A DNA stretch of 64,000 nucleotides. Origin: Taxillus chinensis. Its lineage: Eukaryota > Streptophyta > Magnoliopsida > Santalales > Loranthaceae. Each line of letters begins with the position of its first letter. Position 1 is the first letter of the stretch. A program made the translations under genes and the position numbers. A model generated the notes under the pieces. The model ran no database searches and was not told where the DNA came from. It saw nothing but the letters and a program-made list of their open reading frames with translations. Positions 5,223 to 61,926 of the stretch are shown here, piece after piece. The stretch covers positions 54,183,427 through 54,247,426 of the forward strand of contig CM042089.1 of the NCBI GenBank assembly GCA_023512835.1. Direction: 5' to 3'.

Positions 5223-5916
5223 TGTAATGACCCATATCTTGGGTAGAACGAGCTGGAACGAAGCTGAACAATACCCTGGGCAAACGCTTGGGTCGAAATG
5301 TGGAAGACCCGAAGATTTGGGTCGTAGGGTCGAAGACCGAGGGTCGTAGTTCAAAGGTTTGAGGGTCGAAGGTTTGATCTTCGAGACAGATCTTCGAGGC
5401 TGCGTGTCCAGCGAGTCTTCAAGGGAGTGTTTCTATGAGTCTTCGTGGCTTGGTTGTTAGAGAGTGTAATGAGCTCAACTGGGAGCGTGTAGAGGCTGCG
5501 TGTGACAATGACTACGTTCGGATTGTGGGTGTTTTGTCCTGTGTGGAAGCGGAGTGGTTAGTTCATGTTTTATTTATCAAAACTACGTCGTTTTGATGGT
5601 GGGATTTCATTTATCAAAACTATGTCATTTTGATAAGTGAGGTCTATATAAGGAGGAGCTCTCTTTGTTTTAGGTTTAGGGTTTTTGTTGTCAGCCGCCG
5701 CAGCCATCGTAGAGAGAGAGAGAGCTCCAGCTCGTGGCTGCCGTTGTCATTCCCATGGTTGGATGCTGTTAGGCGTGGAGGCAAGAGCGTGGAGGATCTT
5801 TGAGGTAGGGGTTCTGTTCTTCTTTGAACCTATCCAGGGCTTTGGCCTTGTGATAGGCAATGTAGCTGTTTGGTTTTATATATATAAATATGTAAATTCA
5901 TATAGGTGTGATCTCC
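5223..5916 (+). repeat. 5' LTR of B, first part
   Basis: Starts TGTAATGACCC. It carries the GGTCGAAG minisatellite (about 5285-5385), two ACGT dyads (5576, 5613), a TATA box (5645-5651) and a donor-like AGGTAGGGG (5805). It breaks off inside the conserved CATATAGG hairpin, where H inserted at TCTCC (5912-5916). Confidence 0.9.
5576..5651 (+). promoter_or_regulatory. Two ACGT dyads plus TATA box in B 5' LTR
   Basis: ATCAAAAC-N6-GTTTTGAT type dyads at 5576-5597 and 5613-5634 (second half decayed), then TATATAA at 5645. Confidence 0.65.
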
Positions 5917-6973
5917 TGATAACGTGCATTTTATGCCATTATTCTAGTGTTTATTTAGGATGTTTAAGAGCATGATTAGAGCCTTATTGCCTCATATATC
6001 ATATATATTTGCTCTAACCCCTAGGAAGATGCTAGTTGCAAATACATGCGCTTTTAAGTTGTTTTGGCAGATTTTGGACCTCACTTTTGACATAGTAGAT
6101 GGCCTCAAACAATTGGCGTGCAAGAACAAAAGTTTCTTAGAATGATGTCCTCTACCTACCACAGAAATTTCAGAGCATTTGGAGCTGCACGTGAATTCAC
6201 CCATTTCACGTGCAAGCCTATTTTTGCCTCTCAGGCCTCTACAGGATGCAAGGAAGCTTGGGGAGAAGTTTGAGCTGATTTGGAGGTGCACGTGAATTGA
6301 CCATATCACGTGCAAATTGACGTGCAGAGATATTTTTGGACTGATCCTATCGTTTTTCCATGCTGATCATTTGTTTCTGAAGGCCCGTGTCCAAATTGTG
6401 GATGGAAGATAGAGATTTTAAAGTTTGGAGTGTCACTTATCAAAACTACGCCGTTTTGATAAATGGGCTAGGGTACACACCTCAAAGCCCATCCAAACTC
6501 TATAAATAAGAGCTCCACGCCCTCTGCTATGCATACCTAGACCCCCTACACGTTTTTAGAGAGAGAGAGAGGCTCCACGACTTGGAGGTTGCTCCTTGAC
6601 CTAGGAGAGCAGCCGTCGCAGCAGCCGTCGCGGATTTTGGAGCCTGGATTTGAAGCTTTGCTGTGCGCGTGGTTAAGAAGAAGATGTTTGGCTATTCTGC
6701 TTTGTGTTTGCTTGTAATCATGCGTGAGTAGTCTTTTAATCTAGGGGAGCAATGTAGCCCCCTTGTTGCTTTGCTGTGTTTATGAATATTGGGTTTGGAT
6801 GATTGAGTTTTGCATGTTTTATGAATCTGTTCTTAATCTCTATCTTTGGATGTACACCTTGGTATTTTTAGCCCTAGTCTGGGGCGGATTGAGATTCATA
6901 ACTTATTTGTAATTGGTGTGATCATTATCCTTTTGCAAGTATGATTTATTGGCTTTGCATGTTTGTGTGTTTA
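5917..6973 (+). repeat. 5' LTR of H (3'-truncated)
   Basis: Matches 11222-12281 of the 3' LTR with few differences. It contains the G-box U3 block (about 6018-6350), one ACGT dyad (6439-6460), TATAAATA (6501-6508) and a GA run. It loses the last 440 bp present in the 3' LTR. Confidence 0.9.
6439..6508 (+). promoter_or_regulatory. ACGT dyad and TATA box in H 5' LTR
   Basis: A single ATCAAAAC-N6-GTTTTGAT dyad (6439-6460) lies 40 bp before TATAAATA (6501-6508). Confidence 0.65.
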
Positions 6974-7345
6974 TATGGAGGCCCAAAAATGCAAAATACC
7001 GATTTTAGCCCTCCTAGAAGCTTCAAACAATTCACGTGTAGAAGGGACTATTGCTTGCCAGCTCAAGGGGGACCCACCACCAAAGTTTGGGACGATTCTG
7101 ACCTGCACGCCAATTCAACCAATTCACGTGCAAGGGCTATTTTGGTCAGAACACTCTAAAAATTTAGGGGCACGTGTATCACGCCAATTAGAGCATCTTT
7201 CCTTCTGCACGCTATATAAAGGGAGGCCATCTTCAAAGGCTTCCACACCAAAATCACTCCAGATCTGAGTATTAGAGAAACTCTGCTCTTTTGCTCTCTT
7301 GCTCTTCAGTTTTCTGCTCTTTGTTCTTATTTTCTCATTCCAAAG
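6974..7345 (+). promoter_or_regulatory. Second promoter-like region ahead of the H cargo ORF
   Basis: Not present in H's 3' LTR. It has a TCAAACAATTCACGTG segment (about 7020-7035) and a further CACGTGCAAGGGCTATTTT (about 7124) resembling the U3 block of the LTRs, then TATATAAA at 7213-7220. A pyrimidine-rich leader leads to the ATG at 7346. The arrangement looks like a degenerate LTR promoter placed directly before the cargo ORF; function is inferred. Confidence 0.55.
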
Positions 7346-8600
7346 ATGGTGCGCACAAGGAGGACTGGCCAGGAGGAGGTGCACTCACCTAGTGCTGATA
7401 GCCAACCTGAAGAGGAGATACTCTTGGGGCATGCTCTTGATATGCAGGCTTTAGAGGCTTCAGAGCTGGGCTGGGCTAAAGAGGTGGCTCTTAAAATTCA
7501 AAATCTGGGATTACAAAGGTTAGTATACCCACCCGGCTATGCCTCTTACCCTTCCAAGAATTCTATGCATCGCCTGAGTGAGGATGAGTGATAGGGGTCG
7601 TGCAAGGGGTTTATGTCCGATTACCCCTGAAATTATTAGACATTGCTTTAACCTCCCTGAACCAAGTGATAGCTTCCTCGTCTAGCCTGAGGAGGATGTA
7701 CCGCATGCACTATGCTAAAAAATTTCAAAGTCGAAGGCGATACCAAGAATGGTTTTGTTGGAAAATTTAGATGCCACTTACCTGGAGGATGCTAATTATT
7801 CAGACCATGGGCTAGTTAGGTAGCCGCCTAAGCCACTCGGGTTCATGTATAGCATTGATCATATGCTAAATGTGGATATGGCCATTACCATTTTTCAATG
7901 GTGGAAAAAAACTTTCAAAGTAGATAAATGGCAGACTTTTGTGTGTGATATTTCAAAGCATGCCCTTTTTTGCATTTTCCTCCTTGGAGAGCATCACTTT
8001 TCCTTCTCATTGGGTGTTAAGAGTATTGCATGCCGAAGGAGGTTTGGGAATCAGTTCCAAGAGGTCATTGGGCAACAAATGTTCCTCCTCCAACACAGCC
8101 CGCAAGGCACAGCGTTCATGTGGAGCGATCCACTGACTTTGCAAGGGAAACCTCTCCTCATATGGATCAAAGGAAGCAGACTCTATACAGACTCACTGCC
8201 ATGTACATGCAATTCAATGTACACAAAGAAGATATTTTCAATTTCTTTCAAGGCATTAGTGGGCAGGTGGTGAGCGAAGTGGAGGTCATCAATTGGGCAG
8301 TCACTAATGGGCACATCACAAGTGCCCAATTTGAAGAATTAATGGCCCTCATCTCCTGGAGACCAACAAGCTACTTCACAACCTAGAACCAGAGCATGGG
8401 AGGCTCCGGACGTAGCCGCTCATGCATCACCTAGAGCATGGGAGGCCCCGAAGCTCCTCCCGCTCCATCTACCGAAGCTTGGAGGCAAAAAAACACAGCA
8501 GCTCAGGGAGGCAAATGCCAGAACCCAGCGCGAGGTGGAAGCCCTGAGGAAGGACAATAAAGAAGTCAAAGGCCTCCTAGGCAAAATCTAGAAGGCCTTG
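7346..8600 (+). pseudogene. N-terminal part of the H cargo ORF, broken
   Basis: Begins MVRTRRTGQEEVHSPS after a TATA-bearing leader. Coding-like sequence continues through at least three frame changes: the first frame from 7346 to 7591, another around 7590-7960 (ITPEIIRHCFNLPEPS, then FQWWKKTFKVDKWQ), a third near 7960-8030, and back to the first frame at 8030-8386 (QTLYRLTAMYMQFNVHKEDI). Basic, Gln/Glu-rich sequence at about 8460-8600 may have been a coiled coil. The block ITPEIIRHCFNLP resembles the 'putative plant transposon protein' type of N-terminal domain, a tentative call from memory. It lies in the same overall frame as the peptidase downstream, so 7346-9634 was probably one ORF of about 760 codons. 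Confidence 0.55.
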
Positions 8601-8815
8601 AGCAAGAGGAAAGCATCAAAACGTTCTCCTATAGTGGAGATATCTGATGAAGAACCCTCTCCATCCCCCCGAAGATTCTTATCCAGCCCAGGCAGATCCA
8701 CCTCAACCGGAACCTTCGCTCGGCCATCCCACTATCACCCCGAGAGGAGGCGGCGCCGGCCAAGGGTATTCACCCTTCCGGCCTTTTACCGATCCCTGCA
8801 TATTCTCAGGCTATT

Positions 8816-9634
8816 GTGCTTGTTATACATCCTGTCTCTTGGGGTACATACATGCCTGCTAAACCTGAAGACCTTCTTGGCCCTCCTATCTATCTAATCA
8901 TTAATCCAACCTTATCATCTGCCGAAAGTCAAGCAGCATTTGAAGACTTCATTAATTCTCAGGTGTTAAGGGCTCGATTTGCAAGGGACATGGACCTCTT
9001 CACCTCGTTTGTCCTTCAAAGAATTTTAGGCGATGAATATCTATATTCGGATGAGGTGGACTTGTTTTGCAAGACTATGCGTTTTGTTGTGGAGGCTGAA
9101 CCTCATAATTACCCACTATCCCAGTATACATCCATTATGCTGTGCGAGCTTTACGACCAACCTTTGTCTGAAAGTGTGTGGCGCCAGCGTATCAATGGTC
9201 ACAATGAAGGGCACCGTCCTTGGCATGGTATGCACGAGGTGCTGATCCCTGTGCATATTGAACGTCATTATGTCTTGGTGCGAGTGGATTTGACTGCAGG
9301 GCATGCAGTGCTGTATGATCCAAGCCAAAATGAAGGGTTCACCAGAAGGAAGAGACGGCTTGTTCATGGGCTCATAAAAAGAATCAAGGATGCGATGAGA
9401 CAAGAAGGATTGTTGCAGGATAAGCTCCCTCTTATTCACCTCAACGAAATGGAAATCCCTCAGCAGCCTGACCAATTCAGCTGTGGGATCTTTGTTTGCT
9501 ACTACATGATGGCTATTCTGCAAGGGAAGGAAACTTGGGAAGTGCGTGGCGAGACGTCGATTGACTTTGTGGCTCAGGTGCGACGAATGGTGGCCAATGT
9601 CATCTACTATTACAGCTTGCCAAACCAGGGGTAA
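8816..9634 (+). CDS. Ulp1-like (C48) cysteine peptidase domain, element cargo
   Basis: Open for 272 codons. Ulp1/SENP-type peptidases cleave SUMO or related modifiers. Expected catalytic residues are present: His151 (ERHYVLVRVD), Asp168 (AVLYDPSQ), Gln216/217 and Cys223 (QQPDQFSCGIFVCYY). The spacing and the Gln six or seven residues before the Cys fit the C48 family. The N-terminal 120 residues are unlike yeast Ulp1 but typical of plant transposon-borne versions, which are known from Mutator-like and CACTA elements. The ATG at 8816 is simply the first Met of this open stretch; the true start was probably 7346. The stop overlaps a GGTAAGT site (9630-9636). An intact active site in an otherwise broken ORF suggests recent decay. 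Whether it is expressed is unknown. Confidence 0.85.
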   Translation: MLVIHPVSWGTYMPAKPEDLLGPPIYLIINPTLSSAESQAAFEDFINSQVLRARFARDMDLFTSFVLQRILGDEYLYSDEVDLFCKTMRFVVEAEPHNYPLSQYTSIMLCELYDQPLSESVWRQRINGHNEGHRPWHGMHEVLIPVHIERHYVLVRVDLTAGHAVLYDPSQNEGFTRRKRRLVHGLIKRIKDAMRQEGLLQDKLPLIHLNEMEIPQQPDQFSCGIFVCYYMMAILQGKETWEVRGETSIDFVAQVRRMVANVIYYYSLPNQG

Positions 9635-11207
9635 GTATTTTCCTACTCCCTATTTTATGCCATGTGGACATAGCATATTTTAAGTGTGGTGTATGGGAGT
9701 GACTTGAGCCACTTGCTTGTCTTTTATGTTGTGATTGCATGTTTTATTTATAATTATTTACAAAAAAAAAACAAAAAAACAAAAAAAAGAACAAAAAAAA
9801 TGTTTTTAGTTGCATGATTGTTTGAGTTGTTTGCTTGAATGATTTGCTTGTGGAGACATGGATATTAAGTATGCAATTTTGGCTTAAAATTTAATTTTTA
9901 TGCCACATTAGTATTATGTTGTGATAAGGGTGTTAAAGTAGTTAAAATGTGCTCTGAATTGGTTTAATCATGTCTTTATCTGTTGAATGATATCACCATG
10001 TTTTTGGAGCTGAGTTTTGAATATTAGCTGAGCATGAAATGCTATGATAGACCTAAGTAACCCTTAAAGTTGAGTGAAAAAGAAATGAAAAATGAGAACA
10101 GCTTCTTTTTAACCCTTGAGTAACATTTATGGTTTATGGGTAATAGTTTGATTTGCTACTCTTCTTGCATTAAACATTGGTTATTTAATGGTAGGAGTCA
10201 AGTAAGCATGTGATTACTTATTAGTGCTCAGTGTTTGGTGTGTGGAGTTAGGATGCAAGACCTCTAAGTCATTGTGACTGTCTTTGCATTCTTTTCTTTA
10301 TTTTGTGATATTATATAAAAGGCTGTGATATAGAATGTGAAAAAGCCATCACTTAACTGGAAAATGGGATGTGAGACATCAATGAATTTCTGTCTCTCCT
10401 ATTGTAGCAAAATGGCAAGGGGTATGCATTAGAAACATCAGTCTTATTTATGTGTTATGTGAGTAAAAAAAAGAAGAGAGAATAATCCATCAAGGGAGAG
10501 CATAAAATGCAACCTTGTAAGGTTATTTCTTAAAAAGAAAAGAAAAAAAAGATTCAGAATAAAAGCCACACTGGCTTGATGTTTATGTGGTTTATGTGTG
10601 ATTATTTATTTGTGAAGCCACATTGGCTGAATTGTGTTTTGTTTTGAGAGTTTTGAGCTCAATTATTTGGCTCATGTTATGTTCTATCAGTTATTAGAAT
10701 AGAGTGTGAGTTTATTGAGTTTAGTCTAGAGTGTGAGTTCAAATAAAGTAGAATAGAGAGTGTGTTTTCTTTGATGAGCACAATAGGGAACTCTCATGAT
10801 TGTTTGGCAAGTACTTAATCAATAGCTGATGGCGAGTGTAGAGATAGAGTTTTCCATCCATTGTTCATTGATAGGTATTGGGCTTGAGAATTATTATATT
10901 TGAGTGAGGCTGCTTATCCTTGGTAAGAACTTAAAGGGAAACTAGGTGCTATTTTATCATGGATTGCTTGCTTATATCTGAAATTTAAGTGGTGATAATG
11001 CATGATTGTTGGACTAGGGATATCGACATGAATGAACTAAGTTACGACTCATTTCGATGCTTAAATTCCCATTTCATCATGATAGAGTTGCATGCTTAGG
11101 AAACCATGATTCTCCTTGATTGTTATTTTATTTTTCTTCCGTTTGACTGCGTGTTTATTTTATTTTTGCATGCTTGTATGTTTTTGCTTGAGGACAAGCA
11201 ATGGTTC
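9635..11207 (+). other. 3' non-coding block of H
   Basis: AT-rich, no coding. It is homologous to element E's 58191-59574 read on the minus strand, including GACATAGCA...AAGTGTGGTGT at its start. A-rich tracts lie at 9764-9800 and 10533-10550. Conservation between two elements with different cargo suggests it serves the element, for example packaging or 3' processing; that is inference. Confidence 0.7.
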
Positions 11208-11221
11208 AAGTGTGGTGTATT
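11208..11221 (+). promoter_or_regulatory. Polypurine-tract equivalent of H
   Basis: GAGGACAAGCAATGGTTC followed by AAGTGTGGTGTATT abuts the 3' LTR. The position matches the plus-strand primer of Athila/TAT-like elements, although the tract is T-interrupted. A second copy of AAGTGTGGTGT lies at 9682-9692. Confidence 0.6.
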
Positions 11222-12721
11222 TGATAATGTGCATTTTATGCCGTTATTCTAGTATTTATTTAGGATGTTTAAGAGCATGATTAGAGCCTTATTGCCTCAT
11301 ATATCATATATATTTGCTCTAACCCCTAGGAAGATGCTAGTTGCAAATACATGCGCTTTTAAGCTGTTTTGGCAGATTTTGGACCTCACTTTTGACATAG
11401 TAGATGGCCTCAAACAATTGGCGTGCAAGAACAAAAGTTTCTTAGAATGATGTCCTCTACCTACCACAGAAATTTTAGAGCATTTGGAGCTGCACGTGAA
11501 TTCACCCATTTCACGTGCAAGCCTATTTTTGCCTCTCAGGCCTCTACAGGATGCAAGGAAGCTTGGGGAGAAGTTTGAGCTGATTTGGAGGTGCACGTGA
11601 ATTGACCATATCACGTGCAAATTGACGTGCAGAGATATTTTTGGACCGATCCTATCGTTTTTCCATGCTGATCATTTGTTTCTGAAGGCCCGTGTCCAAA
11701 TTGTGGATGGAAGATAGAGATTTTAAAGTTTGGAGTGTCACTTATCAAAACTACGCCGTTTTGATAAATGGGCTAGGGTACACACCTCAAAGCCCATCCA
11801 AACTCTATAAATAAGAGCTCCACGCCCTCTGCTATGCATACCTAGACCCCCTACACGTTTTTAGAGAGAGAGAGAGAGGCTCCACGACTTGGAGGTTGCT
11901 CCTTGACCTAGGAGAGCAGCCGTCGCAGCAGCCGTCGCGGATTTTGGAGCCTGGATTTGAAGCTTTGCTGTGCACGTGGTTAAGAAGAAGATGTTTGGCT
12001 ATTCGGCTTTGTGTTTGCTTGTAATCATGCGTGAGTAGTCTTTTAATCTAGGGGAGCAATGTAGCCCCCTTGTTGCTTTGCTGTGTTTATGAATATTGGG
12101 TTTGGATGATCGAGTTTTGCATGTTTTATGAATCTGTTCTTAATCTCTATCTTTGGATGTACACCTTGGTATTTTTAGCCCTAGTCTGGGGCGGATTGAG
12201 ATTCATAACTTATTTGTAATTGGTGTGATCATTATCCTTTTGCAAGTATGATTTATTGGCTTTGCATGTTTGTGTGTTTAGATGACCATTCTGGCATACA
12301 ACTCTTAAAAGGACCTCAATGACCATTTGTTGTCCTTGGCTTATGTTTAGCATGTTTTGAATTAGACAACCCTAATATCATGAACCAGTAGAGATAACAT
12401 AGGGAGGTGAAATTGTGACCCTAGATGCTTTTAATCCTTGAATCTTAATCCTAAATTCAATTTGCTTTCTTTGTTTATTCAGAAAACCATATAAAAATTA
12501 GATCTTTAGTTTAAAAAAGAAAACTTTTTGCCAAGACATTTTATAGAACAAGAGTAATTGGGTGTTTTGATTTGAGAACTAGAGAACTAGGCTAATCCCT
12601 GTGGGTTCGACCCCTTGCTTGCTGCTATTCTTTTAGTGCAAACTTAGGGAATTTATTATCTTGAAGAGAGATTTAACGACATTAGCTAGCTCTTTTAGAG
12701 AGGCTAAAAATCTGTCTGTCA
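11222..12721 (+). repeat. 3' LTR of H (1500 bp, complete)
   Basis: TGATAATG...GTCA. It holds the same G-box block, ACGT dyad (11744-11765) and TATAAATA (11806-11813) as the 5' copy. It also keeps the 440-bp 3' end missing there, which includes the CCCTGTGGGTTCGACCCC segment shared with E-family LTRs. Confidence 0.9.
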
Positions 12722-13831
12722 TCTCCTATATGAATGTTGGCCTTCAATGGCGTGTTTTGCTTGGATGTATATATACACGCATGTTAAGTGTTTGATATTA
12801 TGCCTGTGAGGCCATGCATGTTAAGTGTTTGATATTATGCCTGTGAGGCCATACATGTTATGTGTTTGATAATATGCCTGAATGGCCACCCATATTATGT
12901 GTTTGAGATTATACCTGTGTGGCTGGGTTTGTGAGCCTGTGAATGTATGCATGCTAAGTGTTTGAAGTTATGCCTATGTGACCATGCATATTAAGTGTTT
13001 GATGCTATGCCTGTATGGCCATGTGTGTTGCGTGTTTGCTTGTACACCCGGTGGCTATGGAAGCCTGGGCCTGTTTTATTGAACCCGGTGGCTGTGGAAG
13101 CCCGGGACTGTTTATGTTAGCCAATGAGGCTGTGGGAACTATTTGCCTAAGAGGTGGTTAAACTATTTGCCTGAGAGGAGGTTAAACTATTTGCCTGAGA
13201 GGCGGTTAAATCATTGGCCTGAAGAGGCGGTTAAATCACTTGCGGTTAAATCTTTGGCCTGAAGAGGCGGTTAAATCACTTGCTTGAGGTGGTTAAAGTG
13301 TTAGTCTATAGGGCTGTGGAGCTTGTGTGGCTGGGGCTGAGGTTGCGCCCAGTTGTGTGGTGTGTTTCCTTGCTATTTGTTTCTGCCACGTCACTGCACT
13401 GGTACACGCTCTCATATAGATGATAGGTGCATGGGATGGGTTAGGGGAGACTTGATCCCTACTGAGCTGTGGTTGCTCACCCCTCCTACTGTGATATGTT
13501 TTCTTTCAGGAACCTACAGGTGTTAGGTGGAATCCCAAGGTGGAAGACCGTATTTGCTTTACCGTTTCTTTTCGATTATGTTAATTTATGGTAATTGATG
13601 TAACCCTAGTGGGGAGATATTGTAATGAGGAGTTTAATGTAATAAAAGCATGTTTGGACACGTTTGTAATGGTTTGAACTTAATAAATATATGATTTTGT
13701 CTCTCTAAATATTTTTTGTGAAGTGTATAGTGTCCTGTGTGGGCATGTTGTATCTTGCCTCCTTTACCCAAACTCGGGTAAAGGGAGGGTCACGTTCCGA
13801 TCTCCTCGGGTTGGAAATCCGGGGCGTGACA
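12722..13831 (+). repeat. 5' LTR of B, second part
   Basis: Resumes with the duplicated TCTCC and the second arm of the hairpin, then runs through a minisatellite, an acceptor-like TTCTTTCAG (ends 13509), CCCTAGTGGGG, an AATAAA signal and the end GGGGCGTGACA. Confidence 0.9.
12780..13340 (+). repeat. Minisatellite in B 5' LTR
   Basis: Two kinds of unit: about 40 bp ending TATGCCTGTGAGGCCATGCATG, then about 24 bp of GCCTGAGAGGCGGTTAAA repeated about six times from 13146. B's 3' LTR has the same at 19400-19930. Confidence 0.75.
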
Positions 13832-18584: not shown

Positions 18585-20432
18585 TGTAATGACCCGTGTC
18601 TTGGGTAGAACAAGCTGGAACGAAGATGAACAATACCCTGGGCGAATGCTTGGGTCGAAAGGTGGAAGACCCGAAGTTTTGGATCGTAGGGTTGAAGACC
18701 GAGGGTCGAAGTTCGAAGGTTTGAGGGTCAAAGGTTTGATCTTCGAGACAGATCTTCAAGGCCGCGTGTCCAGCGAGTCTTCGAGGGAGTGTTTCTACGA
18801 GTCTTCGTGGCTTGGTTGTTAGAGAGTGTAATGAGCTCAAGTGGGAGCGTGTAGAGGCTACGTGTGACAATGACCACGTTCGGATTGTGGGTATTTTGTC
18901 CTCTGTGGAAGCGGAGTGGTTAGTTCATGTTTTATTTATCAAAACTACGTCGTTTTGATGGTGGGATTTCATTTATCAAAACTACATCGTTTTCATGGTG
19001 GGATTTCATTTATCAAAACTACATCATTTTGATGGTGGGATTTCATTTATCGAAACTACGTCGTTTTGATAAGTGAGGTCTATATAAGGAGGAGCTCTCT
19101 TTGTTTTAGGTTTAGGGTTTTTGTTGTCAGCCGCTGCAGCCGTCGCAGACAGAGAGAGAGCTCCAGTTCGTGGCTACTATTGTCATTCCCGTGGTTGGAT
19201 GGCGTTAGGCGTGGAGGCAAGAGCGTGGAGGATCTTTGAGGTAGGGGTTCTGTTCTTCTTTGAACCTATCCAGGGCTTTGGCCTTGTGATAGGCAATGTA
19301 GCTGTTTGGTTATATATATATATAAATATGTAAATTCATATAGGTGTGATCTCCTATATGAATGTTGGCCTTCAATGGCGTGTTTTGCTTGGATGTATAT
19401 ATACACGCATGTTAAGTGTTTGATATTATGCCTGTGAGGCCATGCATGTTAAGTGTTTGATATTATGCCTGTGAGGACACACATGTTATGTGTTTGATAA
19501 TATGTCTGAATGGCCACCCATATTATGTGTTTGAGATTATACCTGTGTGGCTGGGTTTGTGAGCCTGTGAATGTATGCATGCTAAGTGTTTGAAGTTATG
19601 CCTGTGTGACCATGCATATTAAGTGTTTGATGTTATGCCTGTATGGCCATGTGTGCTGCGTGTTTGCTTGTACACCCGGTGGCTGTGGAAGCCCGGGCCT
19701 ATTTTATTGAACCTGGTGGCTGTGGAAGCCCAGGACTGTTTATGTTAGCCTGTGAGGCTGTGGGAACTATTTGCCTGAGAGGCGGTTAAACTATTTGCCT
19801 AAGAGGCGGTTAAACTACTTGCCTGAGAGGCAGTTAAATCATTGGCCTGAAGAGGCGGTTAAATCACTTGCCGTTAAATCTTTGGCCTGAAGAGGCAGTT
19901 AAATCACTTGCTTGAGGTGGTTAAAGTGTTAGCCTAAGGGGCTGTGGAGCCTATTTGTGTGGTGTGTTTCCTTGCTATTTGTTTCTGCCACGTCACTGCA
20001 CTGGTACACGCTCTCATATAGATGATAGATGCATGGGATGGGTTAGGGGAGACTTGATCCCTACTGAGCTGTGGTTGCTCATCCCTCCTACTGTGATGTG
20101 TTTTGTTTCAGGAACCTACAGGCGTTAGGTGGAATCCCAAGGTGGAAGACTGTATTTGCTTTACCGTTTCTTTTCGATTATGTTAATTTATGGTAATTGA
20201 TGTAACCCTAGTGGGGAGATATTGTAATGAGGAGTTTAATTTAATAAAAGCATGTTTGGACACGTTTGTGATGATTTGAACTTAATAAATATATGATTTT
20301 GTCTCTCTGAATATTTTTTATGAAGTGTATAGTGTCCTGTGTGGGCATGTTGTATCTTGCCCCCTTTACCCAAACTCGAGTAAAGGGAGGGTCATGTTCC
20401 GATCTCCTCGGGTTGGAAATCCGGGCGTGATA
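18585..20432 (+). repeat. 3' LTR of B (1848 bp)
   Basis: TGTAATGACCC...GGGCGTGATA; the terminal CA is mutated to TA. It has four ACGT dyads (18938, 18975, 19012, 19049), a TATA box (19081-19087), donor-like AGGTAGGGG (19241), an intact hairpin TTCATATAGG/CCTATATGAA (19335-19362), a minisatellite and an acceptor-like site ending 20111. Confidence 0.9.
18938..19087 (+). promoter_or_regulatory. Four ACGT dyads plus TATA box in B 3' LTR
   Basis: Dyads start at 18938, 18975, 19012 and 19049, then TATATAA at 19081. The 5' LTR of the same element has only two, so the array changed copy number after or during insertion. Confidence 0.65.
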
Positions 20433-40085: not shown

Positions 40086-41270
40086 ATGCCACCGAGGAGA
40101 GTGACGCGTGCGTCCGGGGTAGTGGCGATGAGTCATCCGCCCATGAGGGCCCGGGTGCGGGACAGTCCGTTGGAGGACATGCACCGTTCCTGGCGCAGCC
40201 GCGAGAAGGCATCCGGTTGGAAGTCCAAGAGCCGAGGGAGGGTATCCAAGCAAGAAGTCCGGGAGGAGGTGCGCCGTGAGATGGCGGCACAACGGGTGGT
40301 GCCACCCCCACCGCCACCACCAGCGGGGAGCTACCCCGGGAGCGTGAGGGTTCTCCGCGTGGTATACCGACTCGTGCAGAAGATGATGTGGTGACACGGT
40401 TCCGAAAGGAACAACCTCCACGATTTAAAGGGGAGGAGGACCCAGTGTTAGCTGAGCACTGGCTGAGGCAAATCGAGCATGTGTTTTCCTTTCTCCTACC
40501 CCGGGAGGAGGATAAGGTGAGACTGGCCATTCGGCAGCTGGAAGGGGATGCTCTGGAGTGGTGGTTGAGTGTCGCGGGGAGCCGTACGGTGCAGTTCATG
40601 CTTTGGGAGGAGTTTCTACAGCTCTACCATGATGAGTTCTTCCCGGAATCTTTGAGATGGCAGAAGAGAGAGGAATTTGGCAGCCTGAAGCAAGGATCAA
40701 AGACGGTGCCCGAGTATGAGCGGGAGTTCCGGAGCTTGAGTAGGTTTGCCCCCGAGACAGTGGCAAAGGAGGACCTGAAGGCCCACAAGTTCACTCGGGT
40801 CTTAGGCCAGCCCTTGGCAGAGGGTGGCGATTCTACATTTGAGGACCTATGCTGAGGTTGTTGAGACAGCACGTATAGCTGAGAGGGAGCTAGAGGATGG
40901 GAGGCAAGTCCATTAGGGTCGCCAGTTGCAAGGTGGGTCTGAACGCGATTCGGGGTCCAAGAGGCCTAAGACTGAGGAGAGAGATAGCAGTCCCTTCCGC
41001 AGCAGGGGACAGACGATGAACCTAGGGAGGTCTAGCTTTGGCGGTGGCGCATGGGCGGTCCAGCAGGAGGTCTCCCCGGCGGTTGTCACCTGCGTGGGGA
41101 GCAAGGCCACTTGAGGAAGGAGTGTCCAAAGAGGGACTGGAAATGCCAAAGTTGTGGACGAGAGGGCCATCTGAGCCGGGTTTGCCGGAGTGGCAACAGG
41201 GGAGTTGGAGGCATGACATCCAGCACAAGGAGTGATGCCAGTTTCCGTGCACCAGAAGAGAGACCAGCTC
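40086..41270 (+). pseudogene. Gag of F, frameshifted
   Basis: Starts MPPRRVTRASG right after TAGTAAGA, the same context as in G. The first 100 codons shift frame more than once. The capsid-like domain is open at 40388-40855 (RFKGEEDPVLAEHWLRQIEH, DALEWWLSVAG, EYEREFRSLSRFAPE). A TAG stands near 40914 in place of CAG. Two CCHC knuckles (CRSGNRG preceded by CQSCGREGHLSRVC) lie about 41080-41200. The product would form particles and bind RNA, but as written the ORF is not translatable in full. Confidence 0.85.
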
Positions 41271-41399
41271 GTCAGTGGCCGGCTAGTCAAGCAGGATCGA
41301 ATCAGACCCGACCCCAGGGGAGGCCGGAGCGGCAGCAGACTGAAGCTGGAGGCAGCCTTGGCGGGAAGCGCCCAGTGAGTGAGCTGACCAGTGGCACGG

Positions 41400-42250
41400 G
41401 CCAAAGGAGGGTGTTTGCGCTGGAGGCGACGTACCCGGAGGTGGCTGAGCTACCACCCCCACCAGCTGAGGGTGGAGTAGGACCATCGGTGGTTATAGGT
41501 ACCCTTTTGATCTCCCGTTCATTAGCTTCTGTTCTTTTCGATACGGGTGCATCATGTTCGTTTGTTGCTGAGCTTGTGATAGATAGCTTGGGGTTAGCTT
41601 GTGTGGAGGCAGCGAAGCCTCTAGTTGTTGAGTCTCCAGTGGGGGGTATGATTGAAGTGTGGCGTGTTTGCCATGACTTTGTGTTAACCATAGGAGAGGT
41701 GGAGCTGAGTTTTGACTTGCATGTAATGCCTTTGAGGACGTTTGACCTGATCTTGGGTATGGATTGGCTTATGGCTTTCCAGGCCAAGATAGACTGTTAT
41801 CGGCGGCGGGTATCTTTCGTGACACCTGCAGGGACCTCTTGCACCCTGCAGGGGGAGTGGGACTGTGAGGCGAGTCGGGCCGGGCCAGTGTTGGACCAGT
41901 GGGGTGCCATTACCCACAGGTTGGCAGCCCTGACCTTTGCTGAGGAGGGGAAGGTGGAAAAGAGGGTGTGGCCCGCTGTTGTGGACCAATTTCAGGATGT
42001 TTTTCCTGAAGAGTTGAGGAGTTTGCCACCTAAGAGGAGTATGGAGTTCACCATTGAGTTGGTGCCGGGGACGGGTCCGATTTCCCAAGTAGAGTATCGT
42101 ATGGGGCCAGCTGAGTTGAGGGAGCTTCGAGAGGCAAATCGAGGAGTTGGTGGGCCAGGGGTATATCAGACCGAGTACCTCACCTTGGGGTGCTCCGGTG
42201 CTCTTTGCAAAGAAGGCAGATGGCACACTACACCTCTGCATAGATTATAG
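41400..42250 (+). pseudogene. Protease region of F
   Basis: Within the open frame 41051-42250. The aspartic protease motif LFDTGASCSFVAEL lies about 41535-41575, followed by FDLHVMPLRTFDLILGMDWL, the conserved second half of retropepsin-like domains. The frame then carries the RT connection (FTIELVPGTGPISQVEYRM) before shifting near 42130. Protease would cut the polyprotein. Confidence 0.85.
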
Positions 42251-43031
42251 GAAGCTGAATCTGGTGACTGTGAAGAACAAGTATCCGTTGCCTCGGATAG
42301 ATGACCTATTTGACCAGTTGAGCGGAGCCCAGTGGTTTTCCAAAATAGATTTACGGTCGGGGTATCAGTTGAGGGTTAGGGAGGAAGACATCCCTAAGAC
42401 GGCCTTTCGGTGCAGGTATGGGCACTACGAGTGGATAGTGATGCCTTTTGGGCTCACTAATGCGCCGGCAGTGTTTATGCATTTGATGAACCAAGTCTTT
42501 GCCCCAGACTTAGACTCGTTCGTGGTGGTGTTTATAGACGATATCTTGGTATATTCCAAGACCGAGAGGGAGCATGTGGAGCATTTGGCAACAGTGTTGC
42601 AAACCTTGAGGGATCAGCGGTTGTTTGCTAAGTTTAGCAAATGCGAGTTTTGGATGCAGGAGGTCCATTTCCTTGGCCACGTAGTATCCGCTAAAGGGGT
42701 TAGAGTGGACCCAGCCAAGATTGAGGCGGTATCATCATGGGAGAGGCCAACCAATGTTTTCGAGATTCGTAGCTTTCTTGGTTTGGCAGGCTATTATCGC
42801 CGTTTTGTAGAGGGGTTCTCCCGTTTGGTGGCTCCTATGATGGCGTTGACTAGGAAAGGAGTGAAATTTGAGTGGACGGACAAGTGCCAGCAGGCGTTTG
42901 AGACTCTCAAAACCCGTTTGACCACTGCACCTGTGTTGAGGTCGCTAGGGAGGATATTCCGTATGAGGTGTATTGTGATGCGTCCAGGGTTGGTTTGGGG
43001 TGTGTGCTTATGCAAGAGCACAATGTGGTAG
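42147..43031 (+). pseudogene. Reverse transcriptase of F
   Basis: RT fingers and palm: [56 protein letters not shown] and the active-site FIDD at 42531-42542. The thumb follows ([37 protein letters not shown]). It lacks one codon relative to [11 protein letters not shown] against [11 protein letters not shown], removing a conserved His. The frame is lost at about 42950 by a 1-bp deletion just before RNase H. Confidence 0.9.
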
Positions 43032-44866
43032 CTTATGGGTCAAGGCAGCTGAAGCCTCATGAGCAGAATTATCCTACTCATGATCTGGAGTTGGCGGCTG
43101 TCATCTTCGCCCTGAAGAGTTGGTAGCACTACCTCTTGGGGGAAAAGTTTATGGTGTTCTCAGATCACAAGAGCCTTCAGTACATCTTTACTCAGAAGGA
43201 CTTGAATTTGAGGCAAAGGAGGTGGGTGGAGTATTTGCAGACCTTTGACTTTACTCTTGCCTATACCCCGGGCAAGGGTAATGTTGTAGCTGACACGTTG
43301 AGCAGGAAAGGGAAAGCTGAGGTGGCTGTGAGAGAGTGGAAGCTGATGGAGTAGTTGGCGATGTTGCGGCTGCAGCCTGTTGTTCGTGATGGTGGGACAG
43401 TCCTGAGTCCTTTGGTGGTTGTGCCTGAGTTGTACCAGCGCGTTCGGGAGGAACACTGGGTGACATTGAGTGTGAGGTTCTCCGTGCCCGTATTGAGGCC
43501 GGGGAGCTATCCGAGGACCGGACGAGAGGGTCCTGAGCATGAGTTGTCGTTTCAGGGGCGGTTGGTAGTGGCTTCTTCCCTCAGGGATGAGGTGATGAGG
43601 GAGTTTCACCAGTCTAGAGTTGCTGTGCATCCAGGGGGTACGAAGATGTACCATGCGCTTCGGACACATTTTTGGTGGCCTGGGATGAAACGCGATGTGG
43701 CTGCCTTTGTTTCGCGGTGCCTCACGTGTCAGCAGGTGAAGGCAGAACATCAGCAGCCGGCGGGCATGTTATAGCCATTGCCCATAGCGGAGTGGAAGTG
43801 GGACCACATCGCGATGGACTTTGTGACTGGTCTTCCACCCACCACTGGGAGAAAGGATATGATTTGGGTGATTGTGGATCGACTCACAAAGTCAGCCCAT
43901 TTCCTTGCTGTTCGCGAGCGGGACTCCATTGGGACCTTGAGTCGGCTCTACATGAACGAGATTGTGAGAGCGCATGGAGTACCATCATCGGTTGTCTCTG
44001 ACCGGGATTCGAGGTTCACTTCCCGTTTTTGGGCAGGTTTGTAGGAGGCTATGGGGACCAAGCTTCACCTGAGTACAGCCTTTCACCCTGAGACTGACGG
44101 TCAGACTGAGAGGACGAATCAGACCATGGAGGACATGTTGAGGGCTTGTGTGCTAGATTTTGGGGGATCGTGGGCAACTCACCTTCCTTTGGTGGAGTTT
44201 GCCTACAATAACAGTTATCAGGCATCCATTAGAATGGCCCCTTTTGAAGCATTGTATGGGAGGCCGTGCCGCTCACCCTTGTGTTGGACTGAGGTAGGAG
44301 AGGCAGCTCTCTTGGGGCCACAGTTGGTTCAAGAGGCTACTGAGAAGGTCAAGTTGATTCATCAGCGTTTGTTATCAGCTCAGAGTCGGCAGAAATCTTA
44401 TGCGGATCAGCGACGGCGACCTTTGGAGTTTTCTGTTGGTGATCATGTGTTCCTTCGTGTCTCTCCACGTCGTGGACATCGACCGTTTGGGCGAGGTTCC
44501 AAGCTATCTCCGCGGTTTATTGGTCCTTTTGAGATTCTGGATTGTGTGGGGCCTGTGACCTACCGGTTAACGTTACCACCGCGGCTGAGTCGAGTGCACA
44601 ACGTGTTTCACGTGTCCCAGTTGCGGAAGTATCACCCTGACCCCACTCATGTGATCGATTGGGGGACATTAGACATTGAGGATGACATGTCCGTTGTTGA
44701 GGCCCCTATCCGTATCCTCGATCGGCGAGAGAAGCTTTTGCGTGGTCGTGCTATTCCTTTGGTTCACGTGCTGTGGCAGCACCGTGGCATTGAGGAGGAG
44801 ACATGGGAACGTGAGTCCGTGATGCGTGAGCAGCACCCAGACTTGTTCGAGGACGAACAATCTTAA
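42951..44866 (+). pseudogene. RNase H, integrase and chromodomain of F
   Basis: A single frame broken by TAG at about 43124, 43352, 43772 and 44042, all where CAG is expected from other copies or context. RNase H residues are present ([26 protein letters not shown]). The integrase zinc domain ([19 protein letters not shown]) and DDE core ([29 protein letters not shown]) are complete. The C-terminus has the GPY/F-like FIGPFEI and the chromodomain tail [26 protein letters not shown]. The 44051-44866 stretch is fully open. Confidence 0.9.
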
Positions 44867-45206
44867 GCATGGGAGGTGGCTATTGGCCAGTGGCTGTTGG
44901 CCAAGGGATAATGATGTGTTTTCTTGTATTAGTTGTATACGATTTGGTGTATTTGTATTGTCTTTTAGACATGTGTTCTTATTTGTGATGTGTATTTGTG
45001 ACATGCGGATATGTGTTATATGCATTATTGTGATGCATGTGTTGTTATGGATTATGGTGGTACCTTGTGATGTGCTGTTATGTGTTGTGTGCGGTGTATG
45101 ACCCATTTGGGTGTTGGGGCTTGCCGGGTGGCAAATGGGTAGCTTGTGTTTGTTTTCCTCGTATGTCATTTCTTTTCGATGACGAAAAGTCTTAAGGGGG
45201 AGAGGA

Positions 45207-45667
45207 TGTAATGACCCGTGTGTAAACTGTGTGTAAGAAGTTAACCACAAACACCTTGGAGGTTAGTGCACTAGTTTGAGGTAAGAGATGAGCCCAAGAG
45301 GGGACTTTTGGGAGGTGCAGGTGACAAGTGGTAACGTATCTTTATGCCCTAGGAAGATGCTATGCATATACAGGCGCTTTTAGACTGTTTTGCCAGGTTT
45401 TGGAGAGCTATTTTGACCTAGTAGATGGCCTCAAACAATTGGCGTGCAAGAACAAAAGTTTCTTAGAATGAGGTCATCTATTTACCACAGAAATTTCAGA
45501 GCATTTGGAGCTGCACGTGAATTCACCCATTTCACGTGCAAGCATATTTTTGCTTCTTAGGCCTCCACAAGATGCAAGGAGGCTTGTGGTGAAGTTTGAG
45601 TGCATTTGGAGCTGCACGCCAATTGGGGAATTGGCGTGCAAATTGGCGTGCAAATTGGCGTCCAAAT
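45207..45667 (+). repeat. Truncated 3' LTR of F
   Basis: About 460 bp of the LTR start, preceded by the tract TCTTAAGGGGGAGAGGA. It ends within a run of GGCGTGCAAATT repeats, where copia integrase sequence begins. Confidence 0.9.
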
Positions 45668-50068: not shown

Positions 50069-50865
50069 ATGCCGCCGAGGAGAGTGACACATGCGTCCGG
50101 GGCAGTGGCTGATGAGTCATCTGCCCATGAGGGTCCGGGTGCGGGACCGTCCGTTGGAGGGCATGCGTTGTTGCTGGCACAGCTACGAGAAGGCATCCGG
50201 CTGGAGGTACAAGAGCTACGGGAGGGACTCCGGCAGGACGTTCGGGAGGAGGTGCGCCGTGAGATGGCAGCACAGCAGGTGGTGCCACCACCACCACCAC
50301 TAGTAGGAGAGCTGCCTCGCGAGCATGAGAGTTCACTAGGTGGTGTACCGACTCGTGCAGAGGATGACGTGGTGACACGGTTCCGAAAGGAACAACCTCC
50401 GCGATTCAAGGGGGAAGGTGAACCCGTGGTAGCTGAACAGTGGTTGAGGCAGATAGAGCATGTGTTCCCCTTTCTCCTGCCCCGGGAAGAGGATAAGGTG
50501 CGACTGGCGATTCGGCAGCTGGAGGGGGATGCTTTGGAGTGGTGGACGAGTGTCGCGGGGAGCCATGCGCTGCAACTCATGCTTTGGGAGGAGTTCTTGC
50601 AACTCTTCCATGAGGAGTTCTTCCCGGAATCAGTGAGATGGCAGAAGAGGGAAGAATTCGGTAGCTTGAAGCAGGGATCCAGGACGGTACCTGAGTATGA
50701 GCGGGAGTTCCGGAGCTTGAGTAGGTTTGCTCCTGAGACTGTGGCAAGGGAGGACCTGAAGGCCCACAAGTTCACCTTGGGTCTCAGGCCAGCCCTTAGG
50801 CAGAGGGTGGCAATTCTACGCTTGAGGACCTATGCTGAGGTTGTGGAGACAGGAAGGTCTAGCAG
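50069..50865 (+). CDS. Gag of G (capsid-like domain)
   Basis: The ATG at 50069 (MPPRRVTHASGAV) matches the start in F and follows TAGTAAGA. The frame upstream is open to 49961 but is leader. An acidic/basic Arg-Glu-rich segment (LREGIRLEVQELREGLRQDV) looks helical and is followed by a Pro run. The capsid-like domain is complete: RFKGEGEPVVAEQWLRQIEH, DALEWWTSVAG, FLQLFHEEFFPESVRWQKRE, EYEREFRSLSRFAPE, LKAHKFTLGLRPALR. About 190 bp between it and the zinc knuckles, present in F, are deleted here, and the frame shifts so that the ORF ends at 50950 in missense sequence. Confidence 0.85.
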
Positions 50866-50882
50866 GAGGACTCCCCAGCGGT

Positions 50883-51182
50883 TGTCATTGCTGTGGGGAG
50901 CAAGGCCACTTCAAGAGGGAGTGTCCCAAGAAGAACTGGCGATGCAATAGCTGTGGACGAGAAGGCCATTTGAGCCGGGTTTGCCGGAGTAGCAACAAGG
51001 GAGTTGGAGGCATGGCATCCAGCATGAGGAGTGACGCCGGTTCCGTACACCAGCGGAGAGACCAGCTCGTCGGTGGCAGGCTAGTCAGGCAGGATCGAGT
51101 CGGACCCGACCCCCGGGGGAGGCCGGAGCGGCAGCAGATCGAGGGCGGAGGCAACCTTAGCGGGAAGCGTCCAGGTGAGTGA
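50883..51182 (+). pseudogene. Zinc knuckles and linker of G
   Basis: Two CX2CX4HX4C knuckles: CHCCGEQGHFKREC and CNSCGREGHLSRVC (50883-50984), separated from the capsid domain by a frameshift and deletion. A Gln/Arg/Gly-rich linker leads to the protease; a second shift occurs near 51175. Knuckles bind the element RNA. Confidence 0.85.
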
Positions 51183-51938
51183 GCCGACCAGTGGCACGGG
51201 CCAAGGAAGGGTGTTTGCGCTGGAGGCGACGTACCAGGAGGAGGCTGAGCTACCACCCCCACCAGCTGAGGGTGGAGCAGGATCGTCGGTGGTTAGAGGT
51301 ACCCTTTTGATCTCCCGTACATTAGCTTCTGTTCTCTTTGATACGGGTGCATCGTGTTCCTTCGCTGCCGAGCTTCTTATTGATGGCTTGGGGTTAGCTT
51401 GTGTGGAGGCCGCGAGGCCCCTAGTTGTGGAGTCTCCGGTGGGAGGCATGATTGAGGTACGGCGTGTGTGTCGTAACTGTGTGTTAACCATAGGCGAGGT
51501 GGAGCTGAGTTTTGACTTGCATGTGATGCCTTTGCATACTTTTGACCTGATCTTGGGTATGGATTGGCTTATGGCTTTCCAAGCCAAGATAGACTGTTAC
51601 CGGCGGCGTGTATCCTTCGTGACACCTGCAGGGATCTCTTGCACCCCTGCAGGGGGAGTGGGGACCGTGAGGCGAGTCGGGCCGGGCCGGTGTTGGACCG
51701 GTGGGGTGCCATTACCCACAGGTTGGCAGCCCCGACCTTTGCCGAGGTGGGTAAGGTGGAAAAGAGGGTGTGGCCTGCTGTTGTGGACCAATTTCAGGAT
51801 GTCTTCCCTGACCAGTTGAGGAGTTTACCTCCGCAGAGGAGTGTGGAGTTCACCATTGAGTTGGTGCCGGGAACGGGTCCGATTTCCCAAGTAGCGTATC
51901 GTATGGGGCTAGCCGAGCTGAGGGAGGTGCAGAGGTAA
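51175..51938 (+). pseudogene. Protease and RT connection of G
   Basis: LFDTGASCSFAAELLIDGLGL carries the catalytic Asp (51340). FDLHVMPLHTFDLILGMDWL follows. An extra C in CACCCCTGCAG near 51646 (F has CACCCTGCAG) shifts the frame; a homopolymer error is possible. The next frame gives VVDQFQDVFPDQLRSLPPQR, FTIELVPGTGPIS and YRMGLAELREVQR, then TAA at 51936 where F has CAA. Confidence 0.85.
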
Positions 51939-52412
51939 ATCGAGGAGTTGGTGGGCCAAGGGTATATCAGACCGAGTACCTCACCTTGGGGTGCTCCGGT
52001 GCTCTTTGCTAAGAAGGCTGATGGCACACTTCGTCTCTGCATCGACTACAGGAAGCTGAATTCAGTGACTGTGAAGCACAAGTACCCGTTGCCTCAGATA
52101 GATGACCTGTTTGACCAATTGAGTGGGGCCCAGTGGTTTTCCAAAATAGATTTACGGTCGGGGTATCATCAGTTGAGGGTTAGGGAGGGAGACATCCCTA
52201 AGACGGCCTTTCGGTGCAGGTATGGGCACTACGAGTGGATAGTGATGCCTTTTGGGCTCACTAATGCGCCGGCAGTATTTATGCATTTGATGAACCAAGT
52301 CTTTGCCCCATACTTAGACTCGTTCGTGGTGGTGTTTATCGACGATATCTTGGTGTATTCCAAGACCGAGAAGGAGCATGTGGAGACTTGGCAACAGTGT
52401 TGCAAACCTTGA
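51939..52412 (+). pseudogene. Reverse transcriptase palm of G
   Basis: In frame with the previous stretch after the TAA. It contains [57 protein letters not shown] and FIDD (52335-52346). All RT catalytic Asp residues are present. A net 1-bp loss near 52391 moves the frame; RT thumb and RNase H continue from 52388. Confidence 0.9.
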
Positions 52413-53578: not shown

Positions 53579-53581
53579 CCA

Positions 53582-54667: not shown

Positions 54668-54979
54668 GCGTGGGAGGTGGCTGTTGTGTTTTCTTGTATT
54701 AGTTGTGTACGATTTGGTGTATTTGTATTGTCTTTTAAAGACATGTGTTCTTATTTGTGATGTGTTTTGAGATGTGTATTCGTGACATGCGGACATGTGT
54801 TATATGCATTATTGTGGTTATGGATTATGGTGGTACCTTGTTATGTGCTGTTATGTGTTGTGCGTGGTGTATGACCCGTTTGGGTGTTGTGGCTCGCCGT
54901 GTGGCAAATGGGTAGCTTGTGTTTGTTTTCCTCGTATGTCATTTCTTTTCGAGGACAAAAAGTCTTAAGGGGGAGAGGA
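54668..54979 (+). other. 3' untranslated part of G interior and polypurine tract
   Basis: Non-coding G/T-rich sequence shared with A, B, D and F, with TTCTTTTCGAGGACAAAAAG shortly before the tract CTTAAGGGGGAGAGGA (54964-54979). Confidence 0.8.
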
Positions 54980-55412
54980 TGTAAGGACCCGTACCTTGAG
55001 TTAGTCACAGTTTTGCCTTCTGAGTAGAGTTTTTCTAGATTTTGACCTAGTGAATGGACTCCAATGAATTCACGTGCAAAAGGAAAGATGCTTAGAATGA
55101 TGTCCTCTATCTACCATAGAAGTTTCAGGCCAAACGGACGTGTATGTGAGGTGCACGTGAAATGGGTCCAATTCACGTGCAAGTGTGGTTGTCTTCTACA
55201 TGATGCAAGGAGGCTAGGGGTGAAGTTTGAGCGCATTTGGAGTGCATTTGGGGTTGCACGTGAATTGGGGAATTCATGTGCAAATTGGCGTGCAGCCATA
55301 TTTTTGCATGGTTCCCTTGGTTTTGACATTCTAATGATCTTTCTCCAAAGGACCATGCTGAAATTCTGAGTATTTTGGCCTATATGGGTGCGGCAAGGTG
55401 CTAACTTGTGTG

Positions 55413-61920: not shown

Positions 61921-61926
61921 AAAACT

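What the first reader, a model, noticed from the sequence alone, without database searches (positions are those of the whole stretch)
5917..12721. LTR element whose main visible gene is a Ulp1-type peptidase
Element H has TG...CA ends, two LTRs and a perfect TCTCC target duplication, yet carries no gag or pol. Instead a long ORF ends in a C48 peptidase with His151, Asp168, Gln216/217 and Cys223 intact. Ulp1 cargo is established in plant Mutator-like and CACTA DNA transposons; I do not know of an established LTR family carrying it. A deSUMOylating cargo could act on silencing or on host SUMO pools, which is speculative.
Basis: partly seen in the sequence, partly recalled or inferred. Interest (0 to 1): 0.8.

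Follow-up and report, generated by a model that had tools for sequence, protein, structure and literature searches.

The report
Retrotransposon family carrying a SUMO-type protease
A plant retrotransposon family with at least a hundred copies in this genome carries, after its usual genes, an extra gene ending in a Ulp1-type (SUMO-cleaving kind) protease that seems to have been kept by selection, which suggests that a jumping gene makes its own enzyme to interfere with a host control system; the copy in the window is a shortened remnant of such an element.

Summary
Element H (5917-12721, TSD TCTCC, empty-site paralog near 19350) carries a genuine C48/Ulp1 domain (Pfam E 3.6e-11, His-Asp-Gln-Cys intact). 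H itself is a deletion derivative: its 5' LTR lacks the last ~437 bp, and PBS, gag and pol are gone. The window's genome (520.9 Mb) gave 122 scored copies of the C48 ORF (lower bound), 49 without a stop in the matched stretch. In 6 of 6 near-full-length family members that I could follow, the gene lies between pol and the 3' LTR of what looks like an Athila-type Ty3/gypsy element (the 3'aORF or env position). The gene reads: TATA-bearing leader, PF20167-like domain (weak match), basic patch with a SUMO-interaction-like motif, C48. Among 8 copies pN/pS in C48 is 0.20 (frame controls 1.03, 1.23), the lowest point value beside gag/RT/INT (0.33-0.36; intervals overlap). So it looks like a regular, selected gene of the family, not a one-off capture or a nested DNA transposon. 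Function (nuclear deSUMOylation, counter-silencing or integration-related) is inferred. In the papers I saw, Ulp1 occurs in DNA transposons (MULE, CACTA, Ginger, Crypton), not in LTR elements. New variant of a known kind.

The parts
5912..5916 (.). target site duplication TCTCC, left copy
   Evidence: empty-site paralog at 19325-19400
5917..6977 (+). 5' LTR, truncated: first 1061 bp of the 1500-bp LTR; U5 end and PBS missing
   Evidence: full LTR followed by AATTGGCGCCGTTGCCGGGG in sister copies
6978..7346 (+). leader of the 3' additional ORF (its left border is where the LTR match of H ends); TATA box CTATATAAAG at 7212-7221; 7072-7143 is 76% alike to the LTR U3
   Evidence: 93-98% alike in 8 sister copies; TATA string in 9 of 9 copies that include it, H counted; LTR similarity
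7347..8650 (+). decayed N-terminal part of the ORF (PF20167-like domain, then NLS/SIM-like stretch), broken by frameshifts and stops in this copy
   Evidence: no Pfam hit in H's own pieces; PF20167 E 1.6e-5 and 3.7e-5 in sister copies L009 and L012, below the gathering score, none in L034
8604..8654 (+). KRKASKR basic patch (8604-8624) and SUMO-interaction-like motif IVEISDEE (8631-8654), in another frame than the C48 ORF in this copy
   Evidence: IVEISDEE in 8 of 9 copies, none in C6-303; the patch reads KRKASKC in C4-152 and C5-254; regex hit in 359 of 20000 shuffles
8651..9634 (+). open frame of 327 aa ending in the Peptidase_C48 domain (Pfam stretch 9239-9541); catalytic codons His 9266-9268, Asp 9317-9319, Gln 9461-9463, Cys 9482-9484
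9635..11221 (+). 3' untranslated region shared by the family; partly shared with the sibling element at 56402-63650
   Evidence: 88-93% alike over most of its length in 14 fetched copies or copy parts
11222..12721 (+). 3' LTR, 1500 bp, complete
12722..12726 (.). target site duplication TCTCC, right copy

Best explanation
H is an internally deleted copy of an Athila-type Ty3/gypsy retrotransposon family. Complete members read LTR - PBS - gag - aspartic protease - RT - RNase H - integrase - leader with TATA box - one long additional ORF - 3'UTR - LTR. The additional ORF (open frames of up to 808 aa) has a PF20167-like N-terminal domain, a linker with a basic (NLS-like) patch and a SUMO-interaction-like motif, and a C-terminal Ulp1/C48 cysteine protease. 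Shown: anatomy, copy number, position, and a substitution pattern of purifying selection. Inferred: the protein is made from the leader promoter (or a spliced RNA), enters the nucleus, is held at SUMOylated host proteins by its SIM, and removes SUMO (or a related modifier) there, most likely from silencing or DNA-repair/integration factors, to help transcription or insertion of the family, perhaps including deleted copies such as H.
For: C48 in H and in sister copies L029, L012, L010. 122 scored genomic copies (lower bound, 8285 first-look candidates), 49 without stops (tallied). gag, RT, integrase zinc and core domains in C5-319; aspartic protease and RNase H weak, below cut-off. All six near-full-length copies that could be followed (C5-319, C4-152, C5-254, C8-229, C2-343, C8-297) have the ORF between pol and 3' LTR. 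Distinct TSDs for six C48-bearing copies: TCTCC, CGTTC, GTTCC, TTAAT, GTCCA, CTCCT. pN/pS C48 0.20 (codon bootstrap 0.13-0.33) against 1.03 and 1.23 in shifted frames; gag 0.34, RT 0.36, INT 0.33, N-terminal part 0.39. Within-element LTR divergence is 0.0095-0.025 in the 8 elements measured, 5 of them with the C48 body, while pS in C48 between copies is 0.167, so most of the constrained divergence arose before the present insertions. Catalytic motifs kept in 7 of 9 copies. TATA in 9 of 9. SIM-like motif in 8 of 9.
Against: No biochemical or expression evidence. The residue after the catalytic His is Tyr, where SENP1 has Trp (alignment), so the modifier may not be SUMO. PF20167 scores are below the Pfam gathering score and absent in L034. 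The residue 28-149 linker does not differ from its frame control (0.43 against 0.50), and shifted-frame controls of RT and INT are 0.66 and 0.65, not 1. The C48 interval overlaps those of gag, RT and INT. Pairwise counts share ancestry, so intervals are too narrow. In C6-303 the catalytic Cys reads Tyr and in C8-297 the motif is altered. 73 of 122 copies have at least one stop in the matched stretch. In H and C5-319 the SIM stretch is in another frame than C48. AlphaFold2 without alignment gave no usable model (pLDDT 34). The lineage was not tested by a tree.
Confidence: 0.55

Rival explanations
1. The C48 domain is a maturation protease for the element's own proteins (as the adenain/I7/pS273R-type Ulp1-fold proteases of large DNA viruses are, recalled), cutting Gag or the additional ORF protein rather than host SUMO conjugates.
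For: C48-fold proteases do this elsewhere (recalled). Divergent substrate tunnel, Tyr after His.
Against: The element seems to have its own aspartic protease (PF13975 E 5.3e-5, 24.2 bits against a cut-off of 28.2), and the ORF carries NLS- and SIM-like motifs.
Confidence: 0.2
2. Env-like or structural 3'aORF: the PF20167-like part carries the function (movement, chaperone, virus-like particle) and the protease fold is kept only as a binding module.
For: Position equals that of Athila env-like ORFs (PMC7264820, PMC11728184, passages).
Against: The catalytic motifs are intact in 7 of 9 copies and C48 has the lowest pN/pS of the parts measured, with overlapping intervals.
Confidence: 0.15
3. A Ulp1-bearing DNA transposon (Kaonashi/CUMULE-like MULE or CACTA) nested inside an LTR element.
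For: Ulp1 domains are well known in MULEs and CACTA elements (PMC13317346, PMC2528002, PMC6117577, passages). The N-terminal part matches a Pfam family named Transposase_32, though PMC11728184 finds that family in an Athila 3'aORF.
Against: No inverted repeats at the borders of 6978-9634; one search lists 7 short inverted pairs, the nearest to flanking being a T-rich 14-nt pair at 7320-7333/9782-9795. No DUF1985, MULE or CACTA transposase family in the Pfam scans. Same position in all followed copies, abutting the family 3'UTR.
Confidence: 0.03
4. One-off transduction of a host ULP gene fragment into one element.
For: Gene capture by plant LTR elements is known (PMC13317346, passages).
Against: 122 scored copies on nine large contigs and the substitution pattern.
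Confidence: 0.01

Closest known systems
Athila-lineage Ty3/gypsy elements with a sense 3' additional ORF (Athila4, Calypso; sunflower Athila 14)
   Same: LTR, 5-bp TSD, gag-AP-RT-RH-INT without a detected chromodomain, sense ORF between pol and 3' LTR; the sunflower Athila 14 aORF (487 aa) has PF20167 similarity (PMC11728184, passages), as here
   Different: No C48 domain mentioned for that aORF in the passages read; here the ORF continues into a Ulp1-type protease
KIU/VANC genes of Vandal/Kaonashi MULEs and CACTA-ULP elements (plant DNA transposons)
   Same: Transposon-borne gene with a Ulp1 domain, kept across copies; KIU-carrying Vandals cause hypomethylation of related elements (PMC13317346, passages); CACTA-ULP families in grapevine and rice (PMC2528002, passages)
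   Different: DNA transposons, not retrotransposons; the N-terminal part there is of another kind (DUF1985 or Tnp2; DUF1985 recalled for Kaonashi), PF20167-like here
Ginger1 DNA transposons and oomycete Cryptons
   Same: Ginger1: gypsy-like integrase with Ulp1 or OTU protease at the C-terminus (PMC2836005, passages); Cryptons: some encode a C48 peptidase, in part as a separate protein (PMC3212892, passages)
   Different: No LTRs or RT; not in plants in those papers' passages
Retand/Grande/RIRE2 elements with antisense 3' additional ORFs
   Same: Additional gene between pol and 3' LTR kept in most copies (PMC11963269, PMC7264820, passages)
   Different: Antisense, TRP28 and SMC-type domains; in the Retand study no sense ORF encoded a known domain

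Membership tests
LTR retrotransposon | two LTRs with TG...CA and a 5-bp TSD | tested here: met
   H and sister copies; 5' LTR of H truncated
Athila-type Ty3/gypsy | PBS TGGCGCCGTTGCCGGGG next to the 5' LTR (tRNA-Asp type, recalled) | tested here: met
   sister copies; absent from H itself
Athila-type Ty3/gypsy | gag, AP, RT, RH, INT in gypsy order, no chromodomain | tested here: met
   C5-319: gag 1.6e-21, RVT_1 3.5e-31, rve 4.2e-15, H2C2 6.9e-15, no chromodomain hit; AP 5.3e-5 and RNase H 0.0077, both below cut-off
Athila-type Ty3/gypsy | RT/INT phylogeny inside the Athila clade | not tested
   no reference sequences at hand; lineage rests on PBS, missing chromodomain, 3' sense ORF and recalled motifs
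Athila 3'aORF (PF20167/PF03078) | Pfam Transposase_32 above gathering score | tested here: inconclusive
   25.3 and 24.1 bits against a cut-off of 45; none in L034 or in H's own pieces
Peptidase C48 (Ulp1) | profile match above gathering score | tested here: met
   43.8 bits against 20.7; 44.3, 44.2 and 32.7 in sister copies
Peptidase C48 (Ulp1) | His-Asp-Gln-Cys catalytic set | tested here: met
   7 of 9 copies
Peptidase C48 (Ulp1) | deSUMOylating activity | not testable with these tools
   needs biochemistry
Ulp1-bearing MULE or CACTA | MULE/CACTA transposase or DUF1985 and terminal structure of its own | tested here: not met
   no such Pfam hit; no inverted repeats at its borders

The most novel reading that the evidence does not exclude
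A Ty3/gypsy lineage independently acquired a Ulp1 protease as its 3' gene and uses it as a trans-acting, SIM-guided nuclear deSUMOylase that lifts host silencing from the whole family, including gag-pol-deleted copies, convergent with the VANC/KIU anti-silencing proteins of MULEs.
Probability: 0.3. Interest if true: 0.85.

Novelty: new variant of a known kind. Interest (0 to 1): 0.7.

Why it matters
The role of the third gene of Athila-type elements is an old open question (env-like, movement, or other; PMC7264820, passages). A protease with a known fold and a defined catalytic Cys, kept at that place, turns it into a testable biochemical question, and would make SUMO control a retrotransposon-side case beside the KIU genes of MULEs. 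It also gives a practical warning: 'Ulp1 protease' gene models in plant genomes can come from LTR retrotransposons as well as from DNA transposons.

Tried and rejected
Nested DNA transposon: rejected for this copy. One-copy capture: rejected. H as a mobile gag-pol-less subfamily: not supported; C6-303 and C4-264 also lack nearly all of gag-pol but have different junctions; a search for other copies with H's own junction did not complete. Homologs in the protein database: none at E 0.001 among 841 candidates. IMG/VR scans: no relative. AlphaFold2 on the single sequence: unusable, so no fold search was made. NCBIfam: nothing. Neighbouring element E2 (56402-63650): no Pfam domain in the pieces given; tblastn of the C48 ORF against the window gave, besides H itself, only three matches of E 7.7-8.8. 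Dating of C8-297 failed (script stopped). Relation of this C48 to host ULP genes and to MULE or CACTA genes of the same genome (PF02902 search), and pol-leader contiguity in more copies, could not be run: the server did not answer. Literature: ten searches and passages of 15 of the papers (14 of them listed there, PMC3726574 taken from a review's references); none of what I saw reports C48 in an LTR element. The other listed papers I know from the listings only; subscription papers and repeat libraries were not searched.
Full report
What was checked. H spans 5917-12721 with TG...CA ends and TCTCC on both sides; the paralogous sequence at 19325-19400 shows the same flank with one TCTCC and no insert, so H inserted as one unit. 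The complete LTR is 1500 bp (11222-12721). The 5' LTR keeps only its first 1061 bp. The only exact GGCGCCGTT in the window is at 61911 on the other strand, so H has no PBS of this type. LTR divergence is K 0.0095 over 1061 sites, a young insertion.

The gene in H. The 327-residue open frame 8651-9634 matches Pfam Peptidase_C48 with E 3.6e-11, above the curated cut-off, and SENP1 structures with E 4e-4 (profile of three copies E 2.5e-4). His206, Asp223, Gln271 and Cys278 align with residues recalled as the SENP1 catalytic set (alignment). Upstream, 7347-8650 is coding-like but broken by frameshifts and stops. No shuffle of 6978-9634 had so long an open run (0 of 2000).

The family in the genome. 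The window lies in G000:C6:54183427-54247426 of a 520.9-Mb genome. The LTR search scored 40 candidates and listed 41 matches, of which all but one short one cover at least 1050 bases. I fetched 20 stretches around listed LTR hits and 7 continuations. Six elements could be followed through a nearly complete internal region (C5-319, C4-152, C5-254, C8-229, C2-343, C8-297), and 6 of 6 carry the leader and C48 gene between the integrase and the shared 3'UTR; in C2-343 the gene is itself interrupted by an LTR of the family. A further pol-bearing copy, L026, runs off its stretch and is undecided. H, C6-303 and C4-264 keep the C48 gene but have lost all (H) or nearly all of gag-pol, with three different junctions. 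Four short PBS-bearing copies (C2-461, C1-417, C9-332, C7-481) keep only the last 152 bp of the gene, two of them with a piece of the leader; the other fetched stretches show LTR alone, LTR with UTR, or are undecided. Perfect, distinct TSDs were read for C48-bearing copies H, C5-319 (CGTTC), C5-254 (GTTCC), C2-343 (TTAAT), C6-303 (GTCCA) and C4-264 (CTCCT); C4-152 reads GCGAT/GTGAT; for C8-229 and C8-297 a TSD could not be read.

Autonomous structure. In C5-319 the 1500-bp LTR is followed by AATTGGCGCCGTTGCCGGGG, then ORFs matching Retrotrans_gag (1.6e-21), RVT_1 (3.5e-31), RNase H (0.0077, below cut-off), Integrase_H2C2 (6.9e-15) and rve (4.2e-15), with a weak aspartic protease (5.3e-5, below cut-off). 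These are separate open pieces; that any one copy is complete was not shown. No chromodomain was hit. The PBS type, the missing chromodomain and a sense 3' ORF fit Athila (recalled, and PMC11728184, PMC7264820, passages read); an RT tree was not made.

The additional ORF. Its leader (6978-7346 in H) is 93-98% alike between copies, has CTATATAAAG in 9 of 9 copies and resembles LTR U3 over 72 bp at 76%, so an LTR-derived inner promoter is possible. The N-terminal part matches PF20167 at 1.6e-5 (L009) and 3.7e-5 (L012), below the gathering score; L034 and H's own pieces gave no match. PMC11728184 reports PF20167 similarity in a sunflower Athila 3'aORF and relates it to PF03078. Between N-terminal part and C48, 8 of 9 copies read IVEISDEE, which looks like a SUMO-interaction motif, next to a basic patch KRKASKR (KRKASKC in two); C6-303 lacks it (the pattern occurs in 359 of 20000 shuffles; motif meanings recalled). 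In H and C5-319 this stretch is in another frame than C48; in C8-229 and C4-152 it is in the same frame.

Copy number and integrity. The protein search scored 122 copies out of 8285 first-look candidates (lower bound); 49 of 122 (H included) have no stop in the matched stretch, 52 have one and 21 have two or more; 7 stop-free copies lie in open frames of 611-808 aa (tally). Identity to H is 76-94%. Whether each of these 122 lies in an LTR element was not checked; those fetched do.

Selection. Codon counts on 8 of 9 copies (C8-297, split over two stretches, left out) give pN/pS 0.20 (codon bootstrap 0.13-0.33) for the C48 part, with 1.03 and 1.23 in the shifted frames; N-terminal part 0.39 on 8 copies (C5-319, split, left out; controls 0.89, 0.80); linker 0.43 (control 0.50, so no signal there); gag 0.34 (control 0.88), RT 0.36 (0.66), INT 0.33 (0.65) on 6-7 copies. 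The intervals of gag (0.25-0.47), RT (0.27-0.50) and INT (0.22-0.53) overlap that of C48. With both C8-297 pieces the pooled C48 value is 0.204. Within-element LTR divergence in 8 measured elements, 5 of them with the C48 body, is 0.0095-0.025 (the LTR pair of C7-481 is matched by its shared GGGAA), far below the synonymous divergence between copies (pS 0.167), so the constraint acted mainly before the present insertions. Pairs are not independent, so the intervals are too narrow, but the contrast of C48 with its shifted frames is large.

Reading. The C48 gene looks like a standard third gene of this retrotransposon family. The most likely work is removal of SUMO or a related modifier from host proteins in the nucleus, guided by the SIM-like motif, to ease transcription or integration; MULE-borne KIU genes are a precedent for a transposon protein with a Ulp1 domain in an anti-silencing context (PMC13317346, passages; there too the role of the Ulp1 domain is unknown). 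All of this is inference from sequence; the Tyr after the catalytic His leaves the modifier open.

Literature. Ten full-text searches of the open-access library and passages of 15 papers (PMC2836005, PMC13317346, PMC5240378, PMC5821449, PMC11152179, PMC11179849, PMC3726574, PMC11728184, PMC7264820, PMC11963269, PMC6117577, PMC3212892, PMC6264045, PMC2528002, PMC12849586) showed Ulp1 or C48 domains in MULE, CACTA, Ginger and Crypton elements and in none of the LTR elements described there. Repeat libraries and subscription papers were not searched, so priority is uncertain.

Noticed in passing
56402-63650 (minus strand): Sibling Athila-like element with 97.6% alike LTRs and a PBS, interior decayed, no Pfam domain found in the pieces scanned; shares parts of the 3'UTR and of the LTR with H.
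   Followed up: partly
L015, L017, L018, L024 (C2-461, C1-417, C9-332, C7-481): Short copies with PBS that keep only a few pieces of the parent, including the last 152 bp of the C48 gene, and have a stretch of unknown origin of roughly 1.4 kb.
   Followed up: no
L020:8164-9639: An H-family LTR sits inside the C48 gene of element C2-343: the family hits its own copies.
   Followed up: no
L021, L027, L028: Solo LTRs of the family with perfect 5-bp duplications GTCGT, AAGAG and CTCTC.
   Followed up: no
window 41057-45219 and 50856-54992: Two stretches 91% alike in direct order within 14 kb, with gypsy-like pol frames by eye (not scanned with Pfam).
   Followed up: no
window 13129-13306: Short array of a ~25-base GGTTAAA-containing unit in the flanking element.
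   Followed up: no
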